This document shows, in pieces, positions 10,347-51,508 of a stretch of 64,000 nucleotides of DNA. The position numbers were made by a program, and so were the translations under genes. Numbering within the stretch: position 1 is the first letter of the stretch; the number at the start of each line of letters is the position of its first letter. Origin of the DNA: Prosthecobacter fusiformis (GTDB lineage: Bacteria; Verrucomicrobiota; Verrucomicrobiia; Verrucomicrobiales; Verrucomicrobiaceae). The stretch is from contig NZ_SOCA01000003.1 of NCBI RefSeq assembly GCF_004364345.1, forward strand, positions 558,001 through 622,000. Direction: 5' to 3'. The notes under the pieces are model-generated. The model did not search any database. It was given only the letters and a program-made list of their open reading frames with translations, and was not told the DNA's origin.

Positions 10347-10456
10347 ACCCTCCCCATCTCCGGATGGGTCCAGCTGACCTGCCATCCCCAGGTAAACTCC
10401 GCGCGAAACCGCGCCCATACCCACCTGCATCACCAGCAGGTGGTCGTTCAGGTGTC

Positions 10457-11095
10457 GTAGCCGCCTGCACCAGCAGGTGGACGTCCGCCCCCTCAAGTAC
10501 CGTGGGCACTCCTGCCCGCGCCGTCCGCCCCAAAAAGCCCGTCCGCCCACACCTGTAGCCGCCTGCACCAGCAGGTGGGCGTCCGCCTCCTCAAGTACCG
10601 TGGGCACTCTTGCCCGCGCCGTCCGCCCCAAAAAGCCCCCGTCCACCCCATCAAGTGACGCTGGCACTCCTGCCTCCCCGGTGCCGTAGCCGTCTGCACC
10701 AGCAGGTGGGCGTCCGCCCCCCTCAATTACCGTGGGCACTCCTGCCCGCGCCGTCCCCTCCAAAAAGCCCCCGTCCGCCCCATCAAGTGAAGCTGGCACT
10801 CCTGCCTCCCCGATGCCGTAGCCGCCTGCACCAGCAGGTGGGCGTCCGCCCCCCTCAAGTACCGTAGGCACTCCTGCCCGCGCCGTCCCCTCCAAAAAGC
10901 CACCGTCCGCCCCATCAAGTGCGCCTGGCATTCCTGCCTGCCCGGTGCCGTAGCCGCCTGCACCAGCAGGTGGGCGTCCGCCCCCTCAAGTACCGTGGGC
11001 ACTCCTGCCCGCGCCGTCCGCCCCAAAAAGCCCCCGTCCGCCCCATCAAGTGCGCCTGGCACTCCTGCCTTCCCCAATACCGCACCGTCCGCTAA
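10457..11095. repeat. GC-rich tandem repeat field, about 132-bp period
   Basis: Five copies of a unit start at 10457, 10555, 10686, 10818 and 10950 (spacings 98, 131, 132, 132). Each starts GTAGCCGCCTGCACCAGCAG and contains the palindrome CTGCACCAGCAG, a GTGGGCACTCCTGCCCGCGC box and a CCAAAAAGCC box. Copies differ by point changes, and the first is shortened. Frames are open on both strands, but the protein is low complexity and shifts with copy length, so this is noncoding. The whole stretch 10347-11191 between folE2 and the ATP-grasp gene holds nothing else except a double-box element at its right end. Confidence 0.85.
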
Positions 11096-11111: not shown

Positions 11112-11180
11112 CAAAAAATCTTTCTACCCAAAATCTTTCTACCCTCTGCCCAATCCCCCACCAAAACTCCACCACTCCAC
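11112..11180 (-). repeat. Dispersed double-box repeat (minus copy)
   Basis: It carries AAATCTTTCTACCCAAAATC and a second TTTCTACCC box, then TCTGCCCAATCCCCC and a short CCACCACTCCACC run. It is the inverse of the GGGTAGAAAGATTTT elements at 26046, 28625 and 29752 and nearly identical to 12935-13018. Confidence 0.8.
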
Positions 11181-11191
11181 CTCTCCCCGCA

Positions 11192-12846: not shown

Positions 12847-12887
12847 CTCCTGTTAATCCTGAAATCTTGTTAATCCTGTAAAAAAAC
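12847..12887 (-). repeat. AACAGGATT dispersed repeat (minus copy)
   Basis: Read on the minus strand it gives a poly-T, ACAGGATTAACAAGATT, then CAGGATTAACAGGA. A closely related plus-strand copy lies at 45250-45300. Short tandem ACAGGATTA units of this kind occur in intergenic DNA of many Verrucomicrobia and Planctomycetes genomes. Confidence 0.6.
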
Positions 12888-12934: not shown

Positions 12935-13018
12935 AAAAGAAATCTTTCTACCCAAAATCTTTCTACCCTCTGCCCAATCCCCCCCAAAACTCCACCACTC
13001 CACCACTCCACCACTCCC
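12935..13018 (-). repeat. Dispersed double-box repeat (minus copy)
   Basis: It repeats the 11112-11180 element almost base for base: two TTTCTACCC boxes spaced by AAAATC, TCTGCCCAATCCCCC, then CCACCACT repeated three times. Together with the pieces at 12773 and 12847 it fills the stretch between the membrane-protein gene and the terminase-like gene. Confidence 0.8.
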
Positions 13019-21870: not shown

Positions 21871-21915
21871 GACGGGAGAAAGATTTGGGAGAAGAAGATT
21901 TTTTTGGCGGGGGAT
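21871..21915 (+). repeat. Degenerate double-box repeat
   Basis: GGGAGAAAGATTTGGGAGAA and the following GAAGATTTTTTTGG resemble the paired GGGTAGAAAGATTTT boxes of the better copies at 26046, 28625 and 29752, with a few changes. It lies just upstream of the VWA/GATase gene start. Confidence 0.55.
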
Positions 21916-22034
21916 CTTTGGTGTGAACGTGGGTTCGGGGAAAGGCGGGTAATCCGGCGAGAGGGGTGGAGAGCGAAAGGGACTGTTAGGTGCCGGACAC
22001 ACCCGCCCTACGGGTTGGCGGGCGCAGCAGGTTG

Positions 22035-25000
22035 TTAATTGCCATTGCCGAGTTCTTTGTAGTAGCGTTTCACGAGGTCGCGGAAGGCGGGGGGGACGGG
22101 GTCGCGGTCAACGGGGACCATGGGGTTGTCGGTGTCGCGTTTGGCGAGTTCTTCGGCGACGCGATTGCGGAGCTCGACGAGGGGCTGGGTGATGCGCATG
22201 GAGAGGTGGTCGGACTGGGGAGCCTGGTTGTTGCGTTTGTGGTCGATGCGCATGGCGCGGGCGTTGTCGAGGACCTTGGCGGCTTCGTTGCGGAGGTCGG
22301 GTTGGTTGAGGAGTTCTTCGACATTGCGGAGGCGGTCGGCCCATTGGTCGTAACCTTCGCCGGTGAGGGGGCTGCGGTCGGGATGCTCGGCGGTTTCGTC
22401 GAAGAAGAAGGCACCGCCGCCGTCGGCTCCACCGCCGCTGGCATTGGGCTGGAGGGTGCGACGGCGGTCATCGCTGCCGGTATTTGAGTTGCTCCGGTTG
22501 GCGGTGGAAGGGGAGTTGGGTTGGTCTTGACCTTGGCCTTGGCCGGGCTGGCGTTGGGATTGGTTTGAGGACTTGCCTTGGCCGGGTTGCTGGCCTTCTT
22601 CATTTTGGGCTGTTTGGCCAGGCTGCTGGCCCTGTCCTTGACCCTTGCTCTTACTCTGGCCTGGCTTTGCACCTTCGCCTTCGGCACCTTGTTCGATGGA
22701 CTGCTGTGATTCTGGGTTGCGGGCGAGGGTGCCCGCGCTCCGCTCGGAGTCTGCGCCGGGCTGCGGGCTTTGGCCGGGTTGGCCTTCTTTGTTGGGCTCG
22801 CTGGTGGAAGCTTGGTTTTGCTGGGAGTTGGAGGGTGAGGGAGTGGATCCGGGGGCTTCGTTGCGGACAGGAGTGTCCACGCTCCCTTCGGAGCTTTGGG
22901 TTTCTTGGTTGCGGACGGGGGCGTCCGCGCTCCGGGCTGAAGGGGTATCGGCGCTCTTTTCGGGGCTTTGGGTTTGTTCGTTGCGGACGAGGGCGTCCGC
23001 GCTCCGGGCTGAGGGGGTGTCGGCGCTCTGGTCTGTTTGTTCGGATTCGATGTCTTGGATGAGTTTGTCGAGCTCGGAGCGGGCGAGGCGGAGGGCTTCG
23101 GTTTCGCTGCCGAGGACGCTTTCGGCGGCTTTGTCGACGTTCTTTTGGAGTTGCTCGACGGAGGTGGTGGCTTGGCGTTCGGCCTCCTGGGCGTCTAGGC
23201 GGTTGCCATAGCGGGACTGGAGGCGGGCTTTTTCGAGGTTTTCTTCGAGGCCGCTGGTCTGGGCATCGCGAACGGCTTCGTAGAGGCGGCGATGAAGAAG
23301 GGGGTTGTTGCCTTCGGCCTGCTCGCTGATGCGGCGCATGTTTTCGAGGAGGTCATTGACCTGGGTGGTTTGCTCCTCGATCTGGCGGGCGACCTGGCTG
23401 CCATCGAGCATTTTTTCCAGGGCGTTGCTGGTGTCGCTACTGGCATCGGGGGTCTTTTGATTTTCGAGGGAATCGCTGATTTGCTTTTGGTTTTCGGCGA
23501 CTTCTTGGGCCTGCTGGCGGACTTGCTTCATTTCATCGCTGAAGCGTTTGGCGGTCTTCTGCTTGAAGTCTTCCTGCATCTGCTCGAGGTCACGCTGGGC
23601 GCGGGTGGCGGCATTGGCGGCATCGGCAAGCTTCTCCTCCTGGAGCTTTTCTGCGGCTTCCATGACTTGCTCGCGAGTTTGCTCAAGCTGGTCTTTGGCC
23701 TCGGCCATGTTGGTGGCGTTTTCGGAGGTTTCCATGCGCTCCTTGAGATCATCCACATCGCGGAGGAGCTGTTCCTGCTCGTCTTGAAGACGCTGAAGCT
23801 GGTTGGCGAGCTGTTCTTTTTCCTGCTCGGTTTCAGCTTTTTCGATCTGCTTTTGAAGCTCCTTCATTTTTTCGGCGAGGGCTTCCTGGCGGCGGGCGAG
23901 TTCCTTGAGGCGGTTGAGGACCTGGAGGTTTTCCTGTTGCTCGGCGGTCTGCTCAGGGGTGGCTTGTTTTTCTTGTTCGTAGCGTTGCTCCTCCTGTTTG
24001 AGCTCGAGATTCATGAGCTGGTTCTGCTTCGCCTGTTGGGAGGCGCTGCCGGGAGGGCTGGGCTGCTTTTGGCGCATGACGCTGTGCTCGCGGCTCTGGG
24101 CGCGGTGGAGCCATTCGAGGGCGCTTTGTTCAAAGGTGAGGGCCTGGTTCAGAGGCGTACGCTTCTTTTCGGAGGAGGCTTGATCCAGAGGATCCAGCGC
24201 GTCCTTCATGCTCTTCCAGGCTTCGGTGAGGGCGGTTCTGATTTCGACATCTTCGACCTTTTCCATGACTTCTTTGGTCTGGTCCAGGGCGAGGGCCTGG
24301 GATTCGTGAACGACCTCCACATCGGGGGCGGCGGTTTCCATGGTGCGACCGGCACTGGTTTCGCGGACAATGCGCCAGGTGGCATTGACGATCTGTTTTT
24401 GGAGTTCGACGAGTTTGTCAGTATCGGTTTTTTTCTCCGACATGCCGGGTTCTGGAGGCGGGGCTTCGGCTTCGCGGAAGATGTCTTCAAAGTGGCGGAC
24501 GTCGGCAAAGAACATGTCGCTCATGGAGCGACGGACCTCGCCCTGGGGGCCGGTATCCTCAGCCCAGAAATGGTAGCTGACGAGCTGGCGCGGCTCGGCA
24601 CTTTCATGCTCGAGGGCGAGGAGTTCTTTTACGTCCTGCTTTTTGGCGGGCTGGGTAATGCCGTGCTTGAAAGTGATTTCCTTGCTCTTGCCAGCGAGGC
24701 TGAAGCTGACACCACTTTTGGTTACGCCGAGGTCGTCCCAGACTTTGGCTTCGACAGGCAGCTCCTGGATGGAGGAGACCTGGATGTCACGCTTGGGGAA
24801 AACGATTTCGATTTTTGCGAGCTGGTTGGACTGGACTTTGAGGCTGAGCCAGGGCGGGTTTTTATTGGCGCGCTCTTTGTCATCAACGAGGTGGAGACGC
24901 CACTTTTGGGATTTGTCCACCTTCATGCGGGCGGTGAGGACGGTGGGGTCTGTGGGAGAAGGAACGAGGGGGATGATGGTTCTGTCCTCGCCGAAGAGTT

Positions 25001-26000
25001 CGGCTTCCTTGACGGGTTTGTTGATCTTGAAAGTGAAGTCGAGGGCGCTGCCTTCCAGGGCGGTGACCTTGAGGGTGTTCTTGATTTCTTTGGAGGGGAG
25101 GCCGGTGTATTCGGGCGGGGTGATCTTGACATCGGCACGTTCGAGAGCGGGATAGACGAAGGTGGTGATGGTGTGTTGCTGGGATTTCTCTGAGGCAAAT
25201 TCGACGTGGTAGCGGGCGTCTTTGTCCACGCGAGTAATGAGGGCACCAAAGACCTGGCCATCAATGGTTAGGCGCATGGGGATACGTTCACGGACGGAGG
25301 CGTCGGCATCGGGTTCAGTGACGACGAGGGTGGCCTCGGCGGGGACATCTTGGGCGAAGGTGGCCTCAATGATGAGGCGAGAGCCGCGCTCGATCTCGGT
25401 ATCACCGGGAGTGAGGGTGACGGACAGGGCGGATGGAGACGGGGAGGGGGTGGCGTTTTCTTTGACGGCTATTTGGTTAGGCTGGGAGGGGTTGTGGGCC
25501 TGGTTCCAGCGATGGTTCATGAAGAGGAAGGCATTCACCCAAAGGAGGAGGCCGAAGTACATGAGCCAGCGAAGAGGGCGTGACTGAGAGCGGGTGAGGG
25601 TGGCGGTCCAGTCGTGACTGGCGGCGTGGTCGGTGGCGGCGGAGATGACGCGCTGTTCGAGGATGTTGAGATCGGGCTTGTCCAGCAGGCCCTCGGCGGT
25701 AAGGAGGAGGCCGTTGAGGTCGGGGAGCCGGGTCTCCAGGGTGCGGGCGACAGAGCGTCGCTGGCGGATGCGGCGGGTCAGGGCGAAGGCCAGGATGGCG
25801 GCGATGGGGATGGGGGCGAGGAGCAGCCACCATGGGGCGGTGCCGGTCATCCAAGAGAGGGCCTGGACCTTCCAACCGATGAGGATGCAGGTGGCTGCGG
25901 CGGCGAGATAGATGAGGAAGTAACTGAACGAGGTGTGCGCGCCCTGCCAGCCGCGGTGGGCGGCCTGGAATTTTTCTTTGAGGATCTGTTGTTCGATCAT
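22035..26000 (-). CDS. Large coiled-coil membrane protein (DUF4175-like)
   Basis: The 1321-aa protein starts with three membrane helices (about 24-42, 57-75 and 148-165). A periplasmic beta-rich part follows (about 190-480), then a long Gln/Glu/Lys-rich coiled coil (about 600-1000; E-K-M-K-E-L-Q-K-Q-I-E-K). A low-complexity Gln/Gly/Ser/Pro tail ends in a short conserved block (G-E-G-Y-D-Q-W-A-D-R-L-R-N-V-E-E-L-L). It resembles the DUF4175/TIGR02302-type membrane proteins beside MoxR operons. Residues about 1010-1110 are made of translated GC-rich palindromes (S-A-D-A-L-V-R-N), so repeat DNA has entered the gene in frame. The stop is genuine and lies in unrelated sequence. Confidence 0.8.
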   Translation of the reverse strand: MIEQQILKEKFQAAHRGWQGAHTSFSYFLIYLAAAATCILIGWKVQALSWMTGTAPWWLLLAPIPIAAILAFALTRRIRQRRSVARTLETRLPDLNGLLLTAEGLLDKPDLNILEQRVISAATDHAASHDWTATLTRSQSRPLRWLMYFGLLLWVNAFLFMNHRWNQAHNPSQPNQIAVKENATPSPSPSALSVTLTPGDTEIERGSRLIIEATFAQDVPAEATLVVTEPDADASVRERIPMRLTIDGQVFGALITRVDKDARYHVEFASEKSQQHTITTFVYPALERADVKITPPEYTGLPSKEIKNTLKVTALEGSALDFTFKINKPVKEAELFGEDRTIIPLVPSPTDPTVLTARMKVDKSQKWRLHLVDDKERANKNPPWLSLKVQSNQLAKIEIVFPKRDIQVSSIQELPVEAKVWDDLGVTKSGVSFSLAGKSKEITFKHGITQPAKKQDVKELLALEHESAEPRQLVSYHFWAEDTGPQGEVRRSMSDMFFADVRHFEDIFREAEAPPPEPGMSEKKTDTDKLVELQKQIVNATWRIVRETSAGRTMETAAPDVEVVHESQALALDQTKEVMEKVEDVEIRTALTEAWKSMKDALDPLDQASSEKKRTPLNQALTFEQSALEWLHRAQSREHSVMRQKQPSPPGSASQQAKQNQLMNLELKQEEQRYEQEKQATPEQTAEQQENLQVLNRLKELARRQEALAEKMKELQKQIEKAETEQEKEQLANQLQRLQDEQEQLLRDVDDLKERMETSENATNMAEAKDQLEQTREQVMEAAEKLQEEKLADAANAATRAQRDLEQMQEDFKQKTAKRFSDEMKQVRQQAQEVAENQKQISDSLENQKTPDASSDTSNALEKMLDGSQVARQIEEQTTQVNDLLENMRRISEQAEGNNPLLHRRLYEAVRDAQTSGLEENLEKARLQSRYGNRLDAQEAERQATTSVEQLQKNVDKAAESVLGSETEALRLARSELDKLIQDIESEQTDQSADTPSARSADALVRNEQTQSPEKSADTPSARSADAPVRNQETQSSEGSVDTPVRNEAPGSTPSPSNSQQNQASTSEPNKEGQPGQSPQPGADSERSAGTLARNPESQQSIEQGAEGEGAKPGQSKSKGQGQGQQPGQTAQNEEGQQPGQGKSSNQSQRQPGQGQGQDQPNSPSTANRSNSNTGSDDRRRTLQPNASGGGADGGGAFFFDETAEHPDRSPLTGEGYDQWADRLRNVEELLNQPDLRNEAAKVLDNARAMRIDHKRNNQAPQSDHLSMRITQPLVELRNRVAEELAKRDTDNPMVPVDRDPVPPAFRDLVKRYYKELGNGN
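22714..23010. repeat. GCGGACG palindromes inside the coiled-coil gene
   Basis: Four copies, near 22718, 22861, 22910 and 22981, share TTGCGGACGAGGGCGTCCGC followed by GCTCCGG or GCTCCG variants. The arms GCGGACG and CGTCCGC form a short hairpin. All lie in frame in the 1321-aa gene, giving S-A-D-A-x-V-R-N peptides. Identical cores occur at 26649-26800 and 31035-31165. Confidence 0.8.
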
Positions 26001-26336
<336 letters not shown>

Positions 26337-28601
26337 TTATGAATACGTGGGCTGGGGGGTGGGGTGGCGGATTCTTCCGGAGAGCCAGGTTTCGAGGGCT
26401 AGGAGGAGGAGGAGGGCGGTGAGGAGCCAGAGCCAGGCGCGTTGGCGGCCTTCTTGCTCGGTGGTGGCGAGGCGCTCGCGGTCTTCAGGAGGGGAGGGGG
26501 TGAGGTCTGTGGAAGGGGAGTCGAGGGGGAGTCCGAATTCGAGGAGTTTGTTAGGCTCTAATGGGGTGATGCGGGTTTCTTCGGGGGGGAGATTGACGGC
26601 GATGAGGCGGGGGGTTTGGGCGGACGGGGAGGGGTTTTGTGTTTGGGATGCGGACGAGGGCGTCCGCGCTCCGGGGGACGAGGGGGCGGACGGGGAGGGT
26701 GTTTGAGTTGCGGACGGGGGCGTCCGCGCTCCGGGGGAGATGGGGGCGGACGGGGAAGGGCTTTGTGTTTGGGATGCGGACGAGGGCGTCCGCGCTCCGG
26801 TTATCGTGTAGAGGCCGGGGGTAAGGGCGGTGGATTGGGAGAGGGGGTGGCCGTCGGGGGTGAGGATTTGGGTGTTGGCTTCTTGGGGGAAGGCATCTCC
26901 TACTAAGAGGGAGGAGGCGGGTTCGTTGTGGAATCCGGCGGCTTCGAGCCAGCCGTAGAGGAGGGGGACAAACTTGGTGGAGAGGGCGAGCTGGCTGTCG
27001 GCGGGGTGCCAGCCGCTGGTGAGGAGGATGAGGGTGCCTTTTCCGGGGGAGGAGGTGAGGATGGCGGGGGTGCGGTCATCAAACGAGGCGATGACCTTGA
27101 GGAAGGGGGTGGCGGCCTCCGATAGGGACAGAGAGCGGTGTTTCCAAAAGCGGAGTTTGGTGAAGTCCCGGAGGCGCTCGTCGGCAAAGGGGCGGAGGAG
27201 GGGGTGGGCTATATCTACCTGGGCCAGCATGAGGTAATCCTGTGAAGGGGCGGCTGGACTGAGGGCGATGGCGGCGGCCGGGGCACTGGAGAGGGTGCTG
27301 AGGATGGCGGGGGTGGTGGTATCCTCCACGACGGTGACGACCATGCCGCCGTTTTCCATGAAGGTGTGGAGGGCCTGGGCCAGTGGGAGCTGGAGTGGGG
27401 TGCCGGAGGTGAAGACGATGTCGGTTTCCGCCGGGATGCTGGTGGCGGAGGACGAGGGTATAACCTGAAGTGTGGGAAGGAGAGTGGGGGTCTGCTGAAG
27501 TGCGCGGCTGAGGTAGAAGAGGGGGGAGGCGGCTTCGTTGCGGGTGGATTCATCTCCGATGAAGAGAATGTGGACGGGGCGGGGCTGTGGGGGGGCGATG
27601 AAGACGCGATTGTCAAAATCCCAGGCATCTCCGGTGAGGAGGAGTGTGCGGGCCTGGGATTCATCCGCGATGGGAGGGGCGGTGAGGACGCGGGTGGCAC
27701 CGGGTGGGAGGTAACCGGTGATGGCTTCTGCGCCGCCTTTTTCCCAAGCAAGGGTGAAATTCGCCGCTTTGGAATCGCGGGTATTGGAAAGGCGAAGGCG
27801 GGCGGTGGGGCGGCGGGGTGAGGAGGTTGGCAGTGAGGCGGTGTTGTCATCCTCATTGTTATCCTCCGTGGTGGTGGCGGCGAGGGACAGGGAAAGATTG
27901 TCCGAATCTGGGGCGTCCAGGCGGTGGAGGGAGACGGCGATGGTCTCTGGCCAGACTTGGCTGCGGAGGGCATCGAGGCGGGTGCCTTCCTGGAAATCGG
28001 TGAGGACGATGATGCGTTTTTTGAGTCCTGTGAGGCCGGGCTGGCTGGTGAAAAGGGTGGTGGCCTGGACGAGGGCGAGACCGAGATCTGTGGAGGCCCA
28101 GCCGGGGCGGGTTTGCTGAAGGCGCTGATTTGCCGTGGCGGTGCGGGTGCTGGCGGAGGAGGCGTCCTCGGAGAAGGTCCAGAGTGGGGTGAAGTCGCGG
28201 TCAAAGGTGGCGAGGGCGAGGCGGTCCGCCGGGGTGGCGGCGGCGAGTAGGCGCGCGGCTTCGGCCTGGGCGCGGGGCCAGAGGTCTGCGCGCTGCATGG
28301 AGGCGCTGCGGTCCACCAGGATGAGGGTGGCGTGGTTTTGACTGAGGGCGGCGGTTTCCTCTCCGCGCCAGAGCGGGCGGGCGAACATGAGGGCGAGGAG
28401 AATGAGGGCGAGGCAGCGGAGAAGGAGGAGGAGCCAGTGCTCCAGGCGGCGCTTGCTGACGGGCATGGGGGGCTGCGCGTCCAGGAACATGAGGGAGCTG
28501 AACTCCACCCGGTCCTGCGGCGGGCGGCGGCGCAGGTGCATGAGGATGGGGCCGATGATGGCGGCGGCTCCGAGGAGGTAGAGGGGGAAGAGCCAGGTCA
28601 T
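26337..28601 (-). CDS. BatA-like VWA membrane protein
   Basis: This 754-aa protein starts with the BatA N-terminal helix pair (M-T-W-L-F-P-L-Y-L-L-G-A-A-A-I; then E-H-W-L-L-L-L-L-R-C-L-A-L near residue 54). A VWA domain with MIDAS D-R-S-A-S-M follows at about residue 95, then a large periplasmic region, a Pro/Ser/Thr linker, and a C-terminal membrane helix (L-W-L-L-T-A-L-L-L-L-L-A-L). BatA-type proteins work with MoxR ATPases, apparently in envelope protein maturation. The linker at about 600-660 is formed by three translated GC palindromes (G-A-R-T-P-S-S-A). It sits third in the operon. Confidence 0.85.
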   Translation of the reverse strand: MTWLFPLYLLGAAAIIGPILMHLRRRPPQDRVEFSSLMFLDAQPPMPVSKRRLEHWLLLLLRCLALILLALMFARPLWRGEETAALSQNHATLILVDRSASMQRADLWPRAQAEAARLLAAATPADRLALATFDRDFTPLWTFSEDASSASTRTATANQRLQQTRPGWASTDLGLALVQATTLFTSQPGLTGLKKRIIVLTDFQEGTRLDALRSQVWPETIAVSLHRLDAPDSDNLSLSLAATTTEDNNEDDNTASLPTSSPRRPTARLRLSNTRDSKAANFTLAWEKGGAEAITGYLPPGATRVLTAPPIADESQARTLLLTGDAWDFDNRVFIAPPQPRPVHILFIGDESTRNEAASPLFYLSRALQQTPTLLPTLQVIPSSSATSIPAETDIVFTSGTPLQLPLAQALHTFMENGGMVVTVVEDTTTPAILSTLSSAPAAAIALSPAAPSQDYLMLAQVDIAHPLLRPFADERLRDFTKLRFWKHRSLSLSEAATPFLKVIASFDDRTPAILTSSPGKGTLILLTSGWHPADSQLALSTKFVPLLYGWLEAAGFHNEPASSLLVGDAFPQEANTQILTPDGHPLSQSTALTPGLYTITGARTPSSASQTQSPSPSAPISPGARTPPSATQTPSPSAPSSPGARTPSSASQTQNPSPSAQTPRLIAVNLPPEETRITPLEPNKLLEFGLPLDSPSTDLTPSPPEDRERLATTEQEGRQRAWLWLLTALLLLLALETWLSGRIRHPTPQPTYS
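26649..26800. repeat. GCGGACG palindromes inside the BatA-like gene
   Basis: Three copies start at 26649, 26709 and 26775, each TGCGGACGAGGGCGTCCGCG or with one base changed, then CTCCGG. They are spaced 60 and 66 bp, keeping the reading frame, and translate as G-A-R-T-P-S-S-A-S-Q-T blocks. They match the coding copies at 22714-23010 and the intergenic ones at 31035-31165. Confidence 0.85.
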
Positions 28602-28624
28602 GTGGGGTTAATGGGGGAGGGGGA

Positions 28625-28740
<116 letters not shown>

Positions 28741-28835
28741 GGGGCGGGGGCTTTGGGAGGATGAGAGTGTTTAGGACGGGGGGATCTCCATTGAGGACAA
28801 GTCGGACGCGGCGCAGCGCGTCCCTACCAAGGGGG

Positions 28836-29735
28836 TTATCGGCGGGGGCCTCCTTTTTTGCGGGCGCGGGCGGAGAGGAAATCGAAGAGGACGGATTCGA
28901 GGGGGGTGTCGGTGGGGGTCCAGTGGTATTCGATGGCCTGGCGCTCGCAGGCGCGGCGAATGAAGTCGCGGTGGACGGTGAGGCGGTTGAGGTAGGTATC
29001 GCGGGCGGTGGCGGGGTCGATGAAGCGCTCGGTGCCGGTTTCGGCATCGCGGAAGTGGGCGGACTTTTCGAAGGTGAAGTCGATTTCGGCACGGTCCATG
29101 ACGTGGAAGAGGACGACGTCGTGGCCCATGGCGCCTAACCAGCCGAGTTGTTTTTCGAGCTTGTCCACGGGGGCGAGGAGGTCTGAGACGAGGCAGATGA
29201 GGCCGCGTTTGCGGACAAGATCGGCGAGCTGTTTGACACTGAGATCCAGGGAGGTGGCACCAGCAGGGGCTGGCTTTTCAAGCTCCAGCATGAGGCGGCG
29301 GAGGTGACCGGGGCGGTTGCGGGCGGGGATGTGCTCTTGAAGAGTCTGGCCGAAGGTGGTGACGCCGACGGCATCCCCCTGCTGCATGAGGAAGAGGGCC
29401 ATGGTGGCGGCGAGGGTGGCGGCGTAGGCGGCCTTGGTCATGGGGCCGGAGCCGAACTGCATGGAGCGACTGTGGTCCACGACGAGCTGGCAGCGGAGGT
29501 TGGTCTCGTCCTCGAATTTTTTGATGAAGGTGCGGTCGCTACGGGCGAGGACTTTCCAGTCAATGGAGCGGGGGTCGTCGCCCTGGACATAGGCGCGGTA
29601 TTCGCTGAACTCGACAGAGAAGCCGTGATAAGGGCTGCGGTGCATGCCTTTCCAGAGGCCCTCGACGATGACCTTGGCCCGCAGCTCGAGGGAGCGGATG
29701 CGGGCGAGGGCGGCGGTATCGAGGTGGGAGGGCAT
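28836..29735 (-). CDS. DUF58 domain protein
   Basis: The 299-aa protein has the DUF58 signature Y-V-Q-G-D-D-P-R-S-I-D-W-K-V-L-A-R-S-D at about 51-69, followed by a VWA-like domain (V-V-D-H-S-R-S-M, residue 91 on; L-I-C-L-V-S-D-L-L-A-P). It ends in a basic tail. DUF58 proteins pair with MoxR ATPases in nearly all such operons. It lies between the MoxR and BatA-like genes on the same strand, with a heptamer/double-box element in each spacer. Confidence 0.92.
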   Translation of the reverse strand: MPSHLDTAALARIRSLELRAKVIVEGLWKGMHRSPYHGFSVEFSEYRAYVQGDDPRSIDWKVLARSDRTFIKKFEDETNLRCQLVVDHSRSMQFGSGPMTKAAYAATLAATMALFLMQQGDAVGVTTFGQTLQEHIPARNRPGHLRRLMLELEKPAPAGATSLDLSVKQLADLVRKRGLICLVSDLLAPVDKLEKQLGWLGAMGHDVVLFHVMDRAEIDFTFEKSAHFRDAETGTERFIDPATARDTYLNRLTVHRDFIRRACERQAIEYHWTPTDTPLESVLFDFLSARARKKGGPRR

Positions 29736-29751
29736 GGGAGAAAGTGCTCAG

Positions 29752-29880
29752 TATGCAGTGCGCAGTGCGCAGTTCGGAGAGGGTAGAAAGATTTTGGGTA
29801 GAAAGATTTTTTTGGGGGACGGGGAGGGGCTTTGGGGTGTGGCTGAGTCTGAGCACTGCGGACTGAGAACTGAGCACTTG
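29752..29880 (+). repeat. Heptamer and double-box element with inverted tail
   Basis: AGTGCTCAGTATGCAGTGCG and related units (29752-29773) are followed by GAGAGGGTAGAAAGATTTTG and GGTAGAAAGATTTTTTTGGG. At 29847-29879 the sequence returns inverted as GAGCACTGCGGACTGAGAAC and TGAGCACT. It is the only copy here with heptamers at both ends, which suggests a complete unit bounded by inverted repeats. It occupies the spacer between MoxR and DUF58. Confidence 0.85.
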
Positions 29881-29887
29881 CTCGTTT

Positions 29888-30901
<1,014 letters not shown>

Positions 30902-31034: not shown

Positions 31035-31165
31035 TGCGGACGAGGGCGTCCGCGCTCCGGGGGCGTGAGGGTTGTTGCTTTGCGGACGGGGGCGTCCGCG
31101 CTCCGGGGGGACGGCGATGGGTTGTTGCTTTGCGGACGGGGGCGTCCGCGCTCCGGGGGGTTAGC
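31035..31165. repeat. Intergenic GCGGACG palindromes
   Basis: Three copies of TTGCGGACGAGGGCGTCCGC plus GCTCCGGGGG (near 31035, 31080 and 31131) lie in the spacer between moxR and glgX. The last two are separated by GATGGGTTGTTGCTT-type sequence that is itself repeated. They end at the glgX stop codon. Confidence 0.85.
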
Positions 31166-47842: not shown

Positions 47843-48128
47843 AGTAGTAGTGCGTTTATGGGTTGGATTATGATGTTATGTGTCACCCCATCCGAAGACA
47901 GGCTAACAGTCTGATTATGACAAACTTGAGGGCCTAAAGGCGAGAAAAATCTTTTTGGGAGCGGTTTGCCGTCGCCAGGGAAGCGCGGCTGTCTGTTGGA
48001 GGAAACTGGGATGCCTTTTTCAGGAAAGCCGGGGGGGCGTACTGGGAGATGATGCGGGGCAAAAGGCATAATGTGAGCTGAGCCCAGGGCGCTGAGGCAG
48101 TTTGCATGTGAATGCCGGTGCGACCCGA

Positions 48129-48962
48129 TCAGTTACGCTTCTTGAGCGTCAGCCATAGCAGGGCAGTTGCTGCAAGGCTTGTCACAAGGACGATGCTCCA
48201 TGGCATGGGGTCGTGCTGTTCTCTGGCTTGTGGCTCGAACTGAGGTGTTCCTGGTATGGAAGAGTGCTGGGGCTGCGCTATGCTGCTAACGGATGGAGCG
48301 GAGGAATATGACGCCGCAGCAATACGAGCCTCAATCTGTGCAAGTGCCGTCACGGCGGTTTCGTAAAAGCGGCTTTTGGTTCCTGGTAGAGGCTTGCGCG
48401 TTTTGGCATATTCTCGCAGTAACTCAATACTTGAGGAGTCACCGATCCTCCCAAGACTTGCAGCCGCTTCCTCAGTGAGATCGGCATGCAATGGCCCACC
48501 GTTGGTATCGGAGAGGTAGAGCGATAATAGCTGTTGATTCTCATTTGAAGGATAGTGTCCAAGAAACGTTAATCCTAATCTTTTGAAGGTTGAGCCACCT
48601 GGGTCGGCATTACGATTCAACAGCATCTCCAGTTTCTTGCGGACAAAACCCTGCTCGCTAATGGATGCATCCGTTCTTTGGGAGAGTATTCCCCAAGTAC
48701 GAGTGTAGCCATCCCATTCCTGCTCAGTTTCAAGGTGATTGGCTAATTCAAGCAATGCTGGTGTCAAGCCGGGTGTGGTGGTCAGAAGCTTAAAGCCCTT
48801 TTCATTGTCTGTAAACAAAGCTTCATAGCTACCCGAGCAAAGATTGGCGAAATACAGCCTCACTTGCGGCGGCACTGATGCGAAGTGTTGGAGCCTCTGA
48901 GGCTCCACTCCGCTCAAATTCAGCCCTGTCATAATGAGAGCCATTAAAGTGAGGGATTTCAT
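48129..48962 (-). CDS. Membrane-anchored repeat protein, paralog A
   Basis: This 277-aa protein has a signal-like N-terminus (L-M-A-L-I-M-T-G-L-N-L-S) and an armadillo/HEAT-like helical middle (E-E-A-A-A-S-L-G-R-I-G-D-S-S-S-I-E-L-L). A Ser/Pro linker and one C-terminal membrane helix (W-S-I-V-L-V-T-S-L-A-A-T-A-L-L-W-L) ending in K-K-R follow. It has the same length and plan as 50243-51076. The last about 230 bp are more than 90% identical in DNA, while the earlier part is more diverged. No function is recognised. Confidence 0.6.
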   Translation of the reverse strand: MKSLTLMALIMTGLNLSGVEPQRLQHFASVPPQVRLYFANLCSGSYEALFTDNEKGFKLLTTTPGLTPALLELANHLETEQEWDGYTRTWGILSQRTDASISEQGFVRKKLEMLLNRNADPGGSTFKRLGLTFLGHYPSNENQQLLSLYLSDTNGGPLHADLTEEAAASLGRIGDSSSIELLREYAKTRKPLPGTKSRFYETAVTALAQIEARIAAASYSSAPSVSSIAQPQHSSIPGTPQFEPQAREQHDPMPWSIVLVTSLAATALLWLTLKKRN

Positions 48963-50133: not shown

Positions 50134-50242
50134 AAGGGCGCAGTAGGGTTGGTTTGTGTCTCGCTGCGATTATGGGGAGCGAAGCTGGGAGACTTTTAGA
50201 AGCAATAAAAGGGTGTTCAGGAAGGTGTGAGAGTGGGGCTGA

Positions 50243-51076
50243 TCACTTGCGCTTCTTGACCGTCAGCCATAGCAGGGCAGTTGCTGCAAGGATTGTCACA
50301 AGGACGATGCTCCATGGCATGGGGTCGTGCTGTTCTCTGGCTTGTGGCCCGTGCTGCTGTGTTCCTGGTGCGGAAGAGTGCTGGGGCTGCGCTGTGCTGC
50401 TAGCAGATGGAGCGGAGGAATATGACGCCGCAGCAATACGAGCCTCAATCTGAGCAAGTGCCGTCACGGCGGTTTCGTAGTAGCGGCTCTTGCCTCCCGG
50501 CGCTGGCTTGTGTTTCTCAGCATACGCTCGTAATGCTGCAATGCTGGATGCTGTGCCGATTCGGCCAAGGCTTTCGGCGGCTTCTCTCGTTGTATTGCCT
50601 CGTAATGGACCGCCGTTGGTATCGGAGAGATACATTTTCAAAATCCGCTCATTCTCGGGCGATGAGTAGTGGCCGAGAAGAGTTAAAGCGCAATCTTTGA
50701 ATGTTGTCCCTCCGGGGTCAGCGTTTCGATTGACCAAACCTTCCAGCTTTGACCTTACAAACAGTTGCTCACTTTCGGTCGCATCGGTGCGCTGAGCCAG
50801 TAGACCCCAAGCCCTCGTGTAGCCGTCCCATTCCTGCTCAGCTTCGAGACGATTAGCCAGTTCGAGCAGTACTGGGGTCAATCCAGGCGTGCTAGCAAGC
50901 TGGGTGAAGCCAAGCTCATTGTTGGCCCACAATGTCTCATACTGCCCCAAGCAAAAGTTGGTGAAATGAAGCCTTACTTGCGGCGGGACTGCTGGAAAAT
51001 GATTAAGGCTCTGAGGCTCAATCGCATGCAGGTTTAGCCCCAGGAAGATAACAGCTATTGTAAAAACGGAATTCAT
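50243..51076 (-). CDS. Membrane-anchored repeat protein, paralog B
   Basis: Read from the ATG at 51074-51076, this 277-aa protein has the same length and layout as paralog A: leader M-N-S-V-F-T-I-A-V-I-F-L-G-L, shared Q-E-W-D-G-Y-T-R-A-W-G and N-R-N-A-D-P-G-G-T-T-F-K blocks, HEAT-like A-A-E-S-L-G-R-I-G-T-A-S-S, and a C-terminal helix with K-K-R-K. The 33 codons open upstream are not used because they are unlike the paralog. It is the first gene of the patch, 110 nt before the small membrane protein. Confidence 0.6.
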   Translation of the reverse strand: MNSVFTIAVIFLGLNLHAIEPQSLNHFPAVPPQVRLHFTNFCLGQYETLWANNELGFTQLASTPGLTPVLLELANRLEAEQEWDGYTRAWGLLAQRTDATESEQLFVRSKLEGLVNRNADPGGTTFKDCALTLLGHYSSPENERILKMYLSDTNGGPLRGNTTREAAESLGRIGTASSIAALRAYAEKHKPAPGGKSRYYETAVTALAQIEARIAAASYSSAPSASSTAQPQHSSAPGTQQHGPQAREQHDPMPWSIVLVTILAATALLWLTVKKRK

Positions 51077-51436: not shown

Positions 51437-51508
51437 TATCCCCGACAGGAATCGAACCTGTATTTAGAGTTTAGGAAACCCTCGTTCTATCCATTGAACT
51501 ACGGAGAC
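51437..51508 (-). tRNA. tRNA-Arg (CCT anticodon)
   Basis: On the minus strand the 72-nt cloverleaf folds fully. The acceptor GTCTCCG pairs with CGGGGAT (two wobble pairs). The D arm is GTTC/GAAC, the anticodon stem AGGGT/ACTCT with loop TTCCTAA (anticodon CCT), and the T arm ACAGG-TTCGATT-CCTGT. The discriminator is A at 51437 and CCA is not encoded. Its 3' side faces the accessory patch at 48.1-51.1 kb. Confidence 0.93.

What the first reader, a model, noticed from the sequence alone, without database searches (positions are those of the whole stretch)
21871..29880. Heptamer/double-box repeat lies in nearly every spacer of the MoxR operon
Elements made of tandem AGTGCTC units followed by two GGTAGAAAGATTTT boxes occupy the spacers at 26046, 28625 and 29752, a degenerate copy lies at 21871, and inverted copies at 11112 and 12935. 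The 29752 copy has inverted heptamers at its far end (29847-29879), as a mobile unit would. The preference for one operon's junctions suggests a nonautonomous element, or recombination between neighbouring copies.
Basis: seen in the sequence. Interest (0 to 1): 0.62.

Follow-up and report, generated by a model that had tools for sequence, protein, structure and literature searches.

The report
Junction-invading repeat ends of selfish genes
The odd repeats between genes of one operon look like leftover ends of two kinds of small gene-carrying elements that slip into the gaps between neighbouring genes, and the same kind of end may account for several puzzling bacterial repeats that have had no explanation.

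Summary
The repeats are real but not confined to this operon: the genome holds 12 double-box pairs, 5 of them in this window, and 229 heptamer hits.

In relatives the same sequences flank genes. The double box, in inverted or palindromic copies, flanks a gene for a GxxExxY (PD-(D/E)XK) protein. The exact AGTGCTC heptamer flanks, in inverted arrays, a gene for a four-helix-bundle protein (TIGR02436, S23 / 23S-rRNA-IVP family). Inverted arms occur at 56 of 96 GxxExxY genes and 35 of 66 four-helix-bundle genes, against 0 of 326 and 6 of 161 shifted controls. On plasmids, 15 of 16 of them cyanobacterial, 14 of 16 four-helix-bundle genes have them. Two plasmids of one Nostoc strain carry such elements at different junctions of the same operon; each junction has 3 bases in the other.

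Best reading: the spacers hold cargo-less ends of two kinds of selfish element that occupy stop/start junctions and are built like 23S rRNA intervening sequences. How they move is not shown. Ten paper searches found no report linking these genes to such repeats.

The parts
29743..29773 (+). AGTGCTC-type heptamers, 4 units and a part unit; reads as a 3' arm 21 bases or less upstream of the DUF58 start
29782..29810 (+). Double box GGTAGAAAGATTTT x2, arm of a GxxExxY-type element
29843..29878 (-). Inverted heptamers, reads as a 5' arm about 9 bases after the MoxR stop; pairs with 29743-29773 in the predicted RNA stem (z -8.1)
28628..28679 (+). AGTGCTC/GGTGCTC array, 7 units, 26 bases upstream of the BatA-like gene start; solo arm
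28703..28731 (+). Double box, one mismatch in the first box
26046..26083 (+). AGTGCTC array, 5 units, 45 bases upstream of the 1321-aa gene start; solo arm
26101..26129 (+). Double box, one mismatch in each box
21871..21910 (+). Degenerate double box without heptamers
11115..11143 (-). Double box, perfect; octamer tandem (TGGTGGAG-like) beside it at about 11156-11186
12939..12967 (-). Double box, one mismatch; octamer tandem beside it at about 12979-13017
12848..12879 (-). Solo ACAGGATTAACA arm, identical over the searched pattern to an arm of the L078 GxxExxY element of this genome
45263..45294 (+). Solo ACAGGATTAACA arm, 2 mismatches
29888..30901 (-). MoxR-type AAA ATPase (host operon)
28836..29735 (-). 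DUF58 protein (host operon)
26337..28601 (-). BatA / VWA protein (host operon)

Best explanation
The spacers hold relic ends ('arms') of two kinds of compact gene-carrying selfish element that settle between a stop codon and the next start codon. Kind 1 carries a four-helix-bundle gene (TIGR02436/PF05635, the S23 or 23S-rRNA-intervening-sequence protein) between inverted tandem arrays of a short unit of about 7-10 bases; AGTGCTC is one such unit. Kind 2 carries a GxxExxY PD-(D/E)XK gene between inverted arms; the double GGTAGAAAGATT box and the ACAGGATTAACA arm are two such arms. In this genome the copies seen have lost their cargo, most have one arm only, and arms of different kinds lie side by side in one spacer. 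Shown: the same repeats flank these genes in relatives, the arms are inverted, spacers come and go between relatives, and heptamer arms keep a fixed orientation toward neighbouring genes. Inferred: in transcripts paired arms form a long stem like the RNase III substrate of 23S rRNA intervening sequences, so that an insertion between two reading frames does little harm. Not shown: the enzyme and chemistry of movement; for kind 2 the encoded nuclease acting on its own arms is my first guess.
For: Double box as inverted halves around a GxxExxY gene in G019 and G029. Exact AGTGCTC arrays, inverted, around a four-helix-bundle gene in G016 (L271). In this genome a GxxExxY gene between inverted ACAGGATTAACA arms (L078) and another between palindromes of a related box (L081), and 15 further solo ACAGGATTAACA arms. 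Inverted arms (score 30 or more) at 56 of 96 GxxExxY and 35 of 66 four-helix-bundle genes against 0 of 326 and 6 of 161 shifted controls; control genes 1 of 51, that one being the window's own DUF58, and 2 of 53, one locus counted twice. 14 of 16 plasmid four-helix-bundle genes with arms. Two Nostoc plasmids with elements at different junctions of one operon, each junction with 3 bases in the other. Junction of 4-base overlap in 14 of 30 relatives against 234 bases here. Orientation rule met by 22 of 25 heptamer arrays. Paired arms in the predicted RNA of L271, L358 and window 29736-29887 (z -2.5, -8.0, -8.1).
Against: 40 of 96 GxxExxY and 31 of 66 four-helix-bundle genes do not reach the cut-off, among them two of the five GxxExxY genes of this genome that have no repeat by eye. 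A four-helix bundle is not a known recombinase, so kind 1 has no obvious engine. No clean target duplication was found. Double boxes follow the orientation rule in 9 of 12, not significant. The solo-arm spacer 28602-28835 has no unusual fold (z 0.23). Neither a GGTAG-type GxxExxY element nor an AGTGCTC-flanked four-helix-bundle gene was found in this genome, so the cognate genes of the window's arms are known only from relatives. One copy spread by segmental duplication.
Confidence: 0.68

Rival explanations
1. The repeats are MITE- or REP-like repeats moved by an unrelated transposase, and the four-helix-bundle and GxxExxY genes are only frequent passengers caught between two copies.
For: Solo arms outnumber gene-bearing copies in this genome; the four-helix bundle has no catalytic activity known to me; in L058 and L081 each side of the gene is itself a palindrome, as if two miniature elements had captured a gene.
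Against: Only two gene families would be caught, over several phyla, while control genes were not; arms agree within and differ between protein lineages. A transposase gene for these repeats was not searched for.
Confidence: 0.16
2. The repeats are fixed regulatory or RNA-processing sites next to starts and stops, and the two protein families are host regulators that bind them and control their own genes through the same sites.
For: Fixed orientation toward starts and stops (22 of 25 arrays); MacGregor suggested translational control for TAACTGA repeats just upstream of starts (PMC4679880, abstract and passages).
Against: Spacers are absent or carry other repeats in relatives; elements occupy alternative junctions in sister operons; this genome has AGTGCTC arrays and double boxes without a gene flanked by them.
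Confidence: 0.11
3. The arrays are ordinary slippage repeats that arose independently in spacers and have nothing to do with the genes.
For: Unit number varies from 2 to 29, so slippage clearly changes array length.
Against: The same unit recurs at many unrelated loci with a backwards control of 0; inverted pairs surround particular genes; orientation rule; tandem 7- or 8-mers lie within 110 bases upstream of 7 of 12 double boxes, against 24 of 2313 control windows.
Confidence: 0.04

Closest known systems
23S rRNA intervening sequences (IVS) that encode S23p, e.g. Warrier et al. 2016 (PMC4990558, passages read)
   Same: Inverted complementary ends that form a stem, and a frame of the same protein family (PF05635/TIGR02436).
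   Different: Here the elements lie between protein-coding genes, the ends are tandem heptamer arrays, and many copies are solo ends. RNase III cutting was not tested.
REPIN/RAYT system (listing and starts of abstracts seen; details recalled)
   Same: Palindromic ends around a gene, with scattered miniature copies lacking the gene.
   Different: The gene matches only PDDEXK_3 (L057, L058, L081) or the four-helix-bundle families and the weaker related bAvd/Avd models (L271); no HUH/Y1 transposase was matched.
G-rich heptamer repeats of Xanthomonas and Anabaena, Rehm et al. 2015 (PMC4692102, two sections and passages read)
   [quoted passage not shown] campestris; the same orientation rule as here.
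   Different: Different unit; read as G-quadruplex sequences of unknown function and reported as generally not associated with mobile elements. The four-helix-bundle protein XCC0516 (structure 2gsc) comes from X. campestris; its flanks could not be read here.
TAACTGA repeats of Beggiatoaceae, MacGregor 2015 (PMC4679880, abstract and passages read)
   Same: Tandem heptamers in spacers, mostly upstream of starts in one orientation; horizontal spread suspected.
   Different: No protein family linked and no mechanism proposed for the spread; proposed role translational.
23S_rRNA_IVP genes in cas loci, Zhang and Ye 2013 by recall of authors (PMC3936711, passage read)
   Same: 18 such genes reported inside CRISPR-Cas loci; here two plasmid examples, between cas10 and a cmr3-family gene and between cas6 and cas4.
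   Different: Discussed there among functions associated with CRISPR-Cas; here the same genes also lie beside ribonucleotide-reductase and other genes, so they look like passengers of junctions in general.

Membership tests
23S rRNA intervening sequence (IVS) | Inverted complementary ends forming a stem | tested here: met
   L271, L358 and window 29736-29887 fold with arms paired; the solo-arm spacer 28602-28835 does not
23S rRNA intervening sequence (IVS) | Frame of the S23/IVP family | tested here: met
   Met for gene-bearing relatives; the window's copies have no such frame (searches list none on this stretch)
23S rRNA intervening sequence (IVS) | Lies inside a 23S rRNA helix | tested here: not met
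   The copies described lie between protein-coding genes; therefore not filed as an IVS
23S rRNA intervening sequence (IVS) | Excised by RNase III | not testable with these tools
   Needs RNA experiments
REPIN/RAYT | HUH (Y1) transposase gene between the repeats | tested here: not met
   Cargo matches PDDEXK_3/GxxExxY or four-helix-bundle families
REPIN/RAYT | Palindromic repeats in inverted pairs with gene-less copies elsewhere | tested here: met
   Palindromes at L058 and L081; short palindromes without a gene at L022 and L025
MITE | Terminal inverted repeats | tested here: met
MITE | Target-site duplication | tested here: inconclusive
   TGACCTGGC on both sides of one G024 insert; TTCTA on both sides in Nostoc pNsp_a, but the arm unit itself resembles it
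MITE | Matching autonomous transposase | not tested
   No genome-wide search for transposases was made
GxxExxY (TIGR04256) for the gene of the double-box element | Family profile above cut-off | tested here: met
   P0001 and P0002 at 68.5 and 76.8 bits against a cut-off of 35
Four-helix-bundle protein (TIGR02436) for the gene of the AGTGCTC element | Family profile above cut-off | tested here: met
   L271 at 93.3 bits against a cut-off of 24

The most novel reading that the evidence does not exclude
Bacteria host a widespread, so far unrecognised class of selfish gene cassettes (four-helix-bundle S23-type and GxxExxY nuclease-type) that live in the stop/start junctions of operons. Their scattered solo ends are the tandem heptamers and similar spacer repeats described separately, and without explanation, in cyanobacteria, xanthomonads and Beggiatoaceae, and 23S rRNA intervening sequences are the rRNA branch of the same class.
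Probability: 0.5. Interest if true: 0.9.

Novelty: new variant of a known kind. Interest (0 to 1): 0.8.

Why it matters
Heptamer repeats in bacterial spacers have been reported without a known function or way of spreading (PMC4692102, PMC4679880). Two protein families often named only by motif or fold, four-helix-bundle S23 and GxxExxY, lack a known role as far as I know; 'GxxExxY' occurs in 2 papers of the searched library and 'PDDEXK_3' in none. Linking each repeat to a gene family gives both problems one testable answer. It predicts which repeat belongs to which gene, suggests that S23-family genes seen in cas loci are passengers, and offers natural occupied/empty pairs for studying how a tiny element enters an operon without breaking a reading frame.

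Tried and rejected
Considered and set aside: simple slippage repeats; an operon-specific element; a known RNA family in the spacers (Rfam at gathering scores gave one tRNA at 51437-51508 and nothing else in the window, L353 or L058); REPIN/RAYT membership (cargo is not HUH).

Led nowhere: structure prediction of the long GxxExxY protein (mean pLDDT 33, not used); no GxxExxY relative among solved structures at E 0.01; a scan of genome contigs with 17 short GxxExxY proteins could not run, and the scan with three long forms gave 2 loci; a first analysis that ignored the strand of minus-strand matches was wrong and was redone; target duplications stayed ambiguous.

Selection and rows dropped: family loci are the best-scoring matches of each search, not a random sample. 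One search dropped loci cut by contig ends (7 of 34 GxxExxY, 4 of 31 four-helix-bundle). One search dropped L243 (1 of 30 phylum loci) and one search dropped L273 (1 of 67 four-helix-bundle loci). L081 counts as a miss because the automatic frame ran over its palindrome. Shifted controls of the four-helix-bundle set can contain real arms. One search covers 19 of the 20 heptamer clusters that the cut listing showed, plus the window's 29743/29843 pair; the cluster at the start of contig C12 was left out. Plasmid loci opened: 16 of the 25 records with a four-helix-bundle hit and 5 of the 8 with a GxxExxY hit. With the first flank definition 10 of 16 four-helix-bundle genes passed; 14 of 16 passed when arms were allowed to overlap the gene ends, a change made after reading. 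Some shifted controls reached 30 or 52 (L365, L366). Occupied, remnant and empty states at the Gfo/Idh locus were judged by eye.
Full report
Observation. Three spacers of a MoxR-DUF58-BatA operon (Pfam) carry an AGTGCTC array and a double box; a fourth carries a degenerate box; two more double boxes lie near 11.1 and 12.9 kb, with an octamer tandem in place of AGTGCTC. Chance gives 0.17 boxes and 0.41 heptamer pairs in the window against 12 and 14 seen. The whole genome (5.83 Mb) has 12 double-box pairs, five of them here, 229 heptamer hits and 17 copies of a second repeat, ACAGGATTAACA, each with a backwards-pattern control of 0. The genus is probably Prosthecobacter.

Turning point. Of 56 genomes, 7 (own included) have the double box at up to 3 mismatches. 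In relatives several copies are one half of an inverted pair. Where the two halves lie about 0.87 kb apart, in G019 (L057) and G029 (L058), they enclose a gene for a protein of 264-265 residues whose first half matches GxxExxY/PDDEXK_3; in G029 each side is itself a palindrome of about 76 bases. In G013 a broken piece of such a gene lies between halves 0.6 kb apart. The window's genome has five PDDEXK_3 genes. One (L081, long form) lies between two palindromes of a related box. One (L078) lies between inverted ACAGGATTAACA arms, the repeat that stands alone at 12848 and 45263 in the window. One (L077) lies between direct repeats. Two (L079, L080) have no flanking repeat.

The heptamer. The only four-helix-bundle gene (PF05635) found in this genome is preceded by a long GATTTGA heptamer array, on one side only. 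In relative G016 (L271) such a gene lies between AGTGCTCAGTGCTCAGTTCTCAGTGCTC and five GAGCACT units, the exact heptamer of the window, and it matches TIGR02436. L274 in G059 carries an AGTGTTC array on its 5' side and related units on the other.

Statistics. With 350-base flanks, local alignment of one flank to the reverse complement of the other scores 30 or more in 56 of 96 GxxExxY genes (27 from the genus, 69 from the phylum) against 0 of 326 shifted intervals, and in 35 of 66 four-helix-bundle genes (genus) against 6 of 161. At a cut-off of 26 the figures are 60 of 96 against 4 of 326, and 43 of 66 against 10 of 161. Real genes as controls: 1 of 51 DUF58 or Gfo/Idh genes, that one being the window's own DUF58, and 2 of 53 neighbour genes, one locus counted twice. 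Loci were the best-scoring family matches, and truncated ones were dropped (see Tried and rejected). Arms agree within protein lineages and differ between them: GxxExxY pairs of 50-60% identity share arms in 43 of 327 (permuted mean 21.8; 0 of 1000 permutations as high) and of 60-75% in 37 of 106 (6.9; 0 of 1000). Below 50% they share fewer than permuted pairs. Four-helix-bundle pairs share arms above 60% identity (10 of 64 against 2.8, 7 of 1000; 27 of 63 against 2.7, 0 of 1000); below that in 0 of 773. Common descent of whole elements is enough to explain this; it does not prove recognition.

Other phyla. A protein search of plasmids with a four-helix-bundle query gave 25 records, 19 of them cyanobacteria; 16 were opened, 15 cyanobacteria and one Gemmatimonadota. 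In 14 with annotated neighbours on both sides, both gaps are under 100 bases in 10, and the gene lies on the strand of its neighbours in 11. Examples: between two ribonucleotide-reductase genes in Nostoc edaphicum (opposite strand), between cas10 and a cmr3-family gene in Picosynechococcus, and between cas6 and cas4 in Pseudanabaena. Inverted arms (26 or more) are found in 14 of 16 when they may overlap the gene ends, in 10 of 16 when they may not. Of five opened GxxExxY plasmid loci two passed, among them Bernardetia with CACAGAG arms; a third (Fusobacteria) has direct repeats.

Mobility. At the DUF58/BatA junction 14 of 30 genomes have a 4-base stop/start overlap, 8 have spacers of 58-234 bases, and 8 could not be scored. 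The close relative G064 (DUF58 841 of 897 bases identical) shares the first part of the spacer but then has an ACAGG-type arm and ATTCGTC repeats where this genome has the double box and GAGCACT repeats; this may be replacement or differential loss. Downstream of a Gfo/Idh gene, G029, G011 and G019 have the full GGTAG element, others (G068, G005, this genome and several more) have remnants, and others (G058, G018 and G014 among them) have none visible; of 30 loci four were not read by the script and one was cut (by eye). The clearest case is Nostoc sp. ATCC 53789. Its plasmids pNsp_a and pNsp_c carry the same operon (compared pieces 263 of 288, 322 of 348 and 343 of 355 bases identical). In pNsp_a an element with AGTCAGA arms sits after the 441-base gene; in pNsp_c an element with GGGAAAA arms sits after the next, 288-base gene. 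Each of these junctions has only 3 bases in the other plasmid.

Orientation. In this genome AGTGCTC reads in the sense of the gene when a stop is nearest, and GAGCACT when a start is nearest: 22 of 25 arrays, p 8e-5. Of the 20 clusters read, three have both orientations. Double boxes follow the same rule in 9 of 12, not significant. Rehm et al. 2015 describe the same preference for GGGAATC and GGGGATT repeats, and 70 close convergent pairs in X. campestris, with no function found (PMC4692102, sections read). MacGregor 2015 found TAACTGA repeats mostly just upstream of starts and writes that no mechanism of transfer is evident (PMC4679880, abstract and passages).

How it may work. The gene-bearing elements have the anatomy of 23S rRNA intervening sequences: inverted ends and an S23 frame (PMC4990558, passages). 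L271, L358 and window 29736-29887 fold with arms paired (z -2.5, -8.0, -8.1), whereas the solo-arm spacer 28602-28835 has no unusual fold (z 0.23). I infer that RNase III could cut the stem in the mRNA without harming either reading frame. This is not shown. GxxExxY proteins keep E27, D66, E79, K81, Q93 and Y97 in 17 of 17 aligned short forms and could act on their own arms, also not shown. One double-box copy clearly spread with about 1 kb of flanking DNA, so copying of larger segments adds to whatever movement there is.

Novelty. Ten paper searches found no paper linking these repeats to these genes. The library holds open papers only, so absence there is not proof. The anatomy is a variant of intervening sequences and REPIN-like systems; the junction-dwelling habit, the tandem-heptamer arms and the GxxExxY cargo are, as far as I know, new.

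Noticed in passing
window 10440-11074: Five tandem copies of a repeat of about 132 bases in a spacer (D1), different from the elements described.
   Followed up: no
window 22870-23007, 26609-26800, 31041-31156: Seven copies of a repeat ending GCGGACG(A/G)GGGCGTCCGCGCTCCGG, with a built-in short palindrome (D2).
   Followed up: no
window 48127-48426 and 50241-50540: Two 300-base stretches 87% identical, 2.1 kb apart (D4).
   Followed up: no
L003 (contig C1) and L004 (window about 12.9-13.9 kb): About 1 kb shared at 93.7% identity including a double box: a segmental duplication.
   Followed up: partly
L129 and L131; G008:C6:523820-524569: Double-length GxxExxY proteins (272 and 319 residues; two family matches in one frame in G008), as if the gene had been doubled.
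   Followed up: no
L196, L197, L199, L202 (G032, G008, G004, G068): The DUF58/BatA junction holds an inverted TCCTCCTCTTCCTCCTACTC-type repeat pair in these relatives, perhaps another arm family.
   Followed up: no
L184 (G024), DUF58/BatA junction: An insert with TGACCTGGC at both ends, a possible 9-base target duplication.
   Followed up: partly
G000 double-box loci L003, L004, L009: An ACAGG-type arm or a trace of one follows the double box at short distance in at least L003 and L004, so arms of two GxxExxY types sit side by side.
   Followed up: partly
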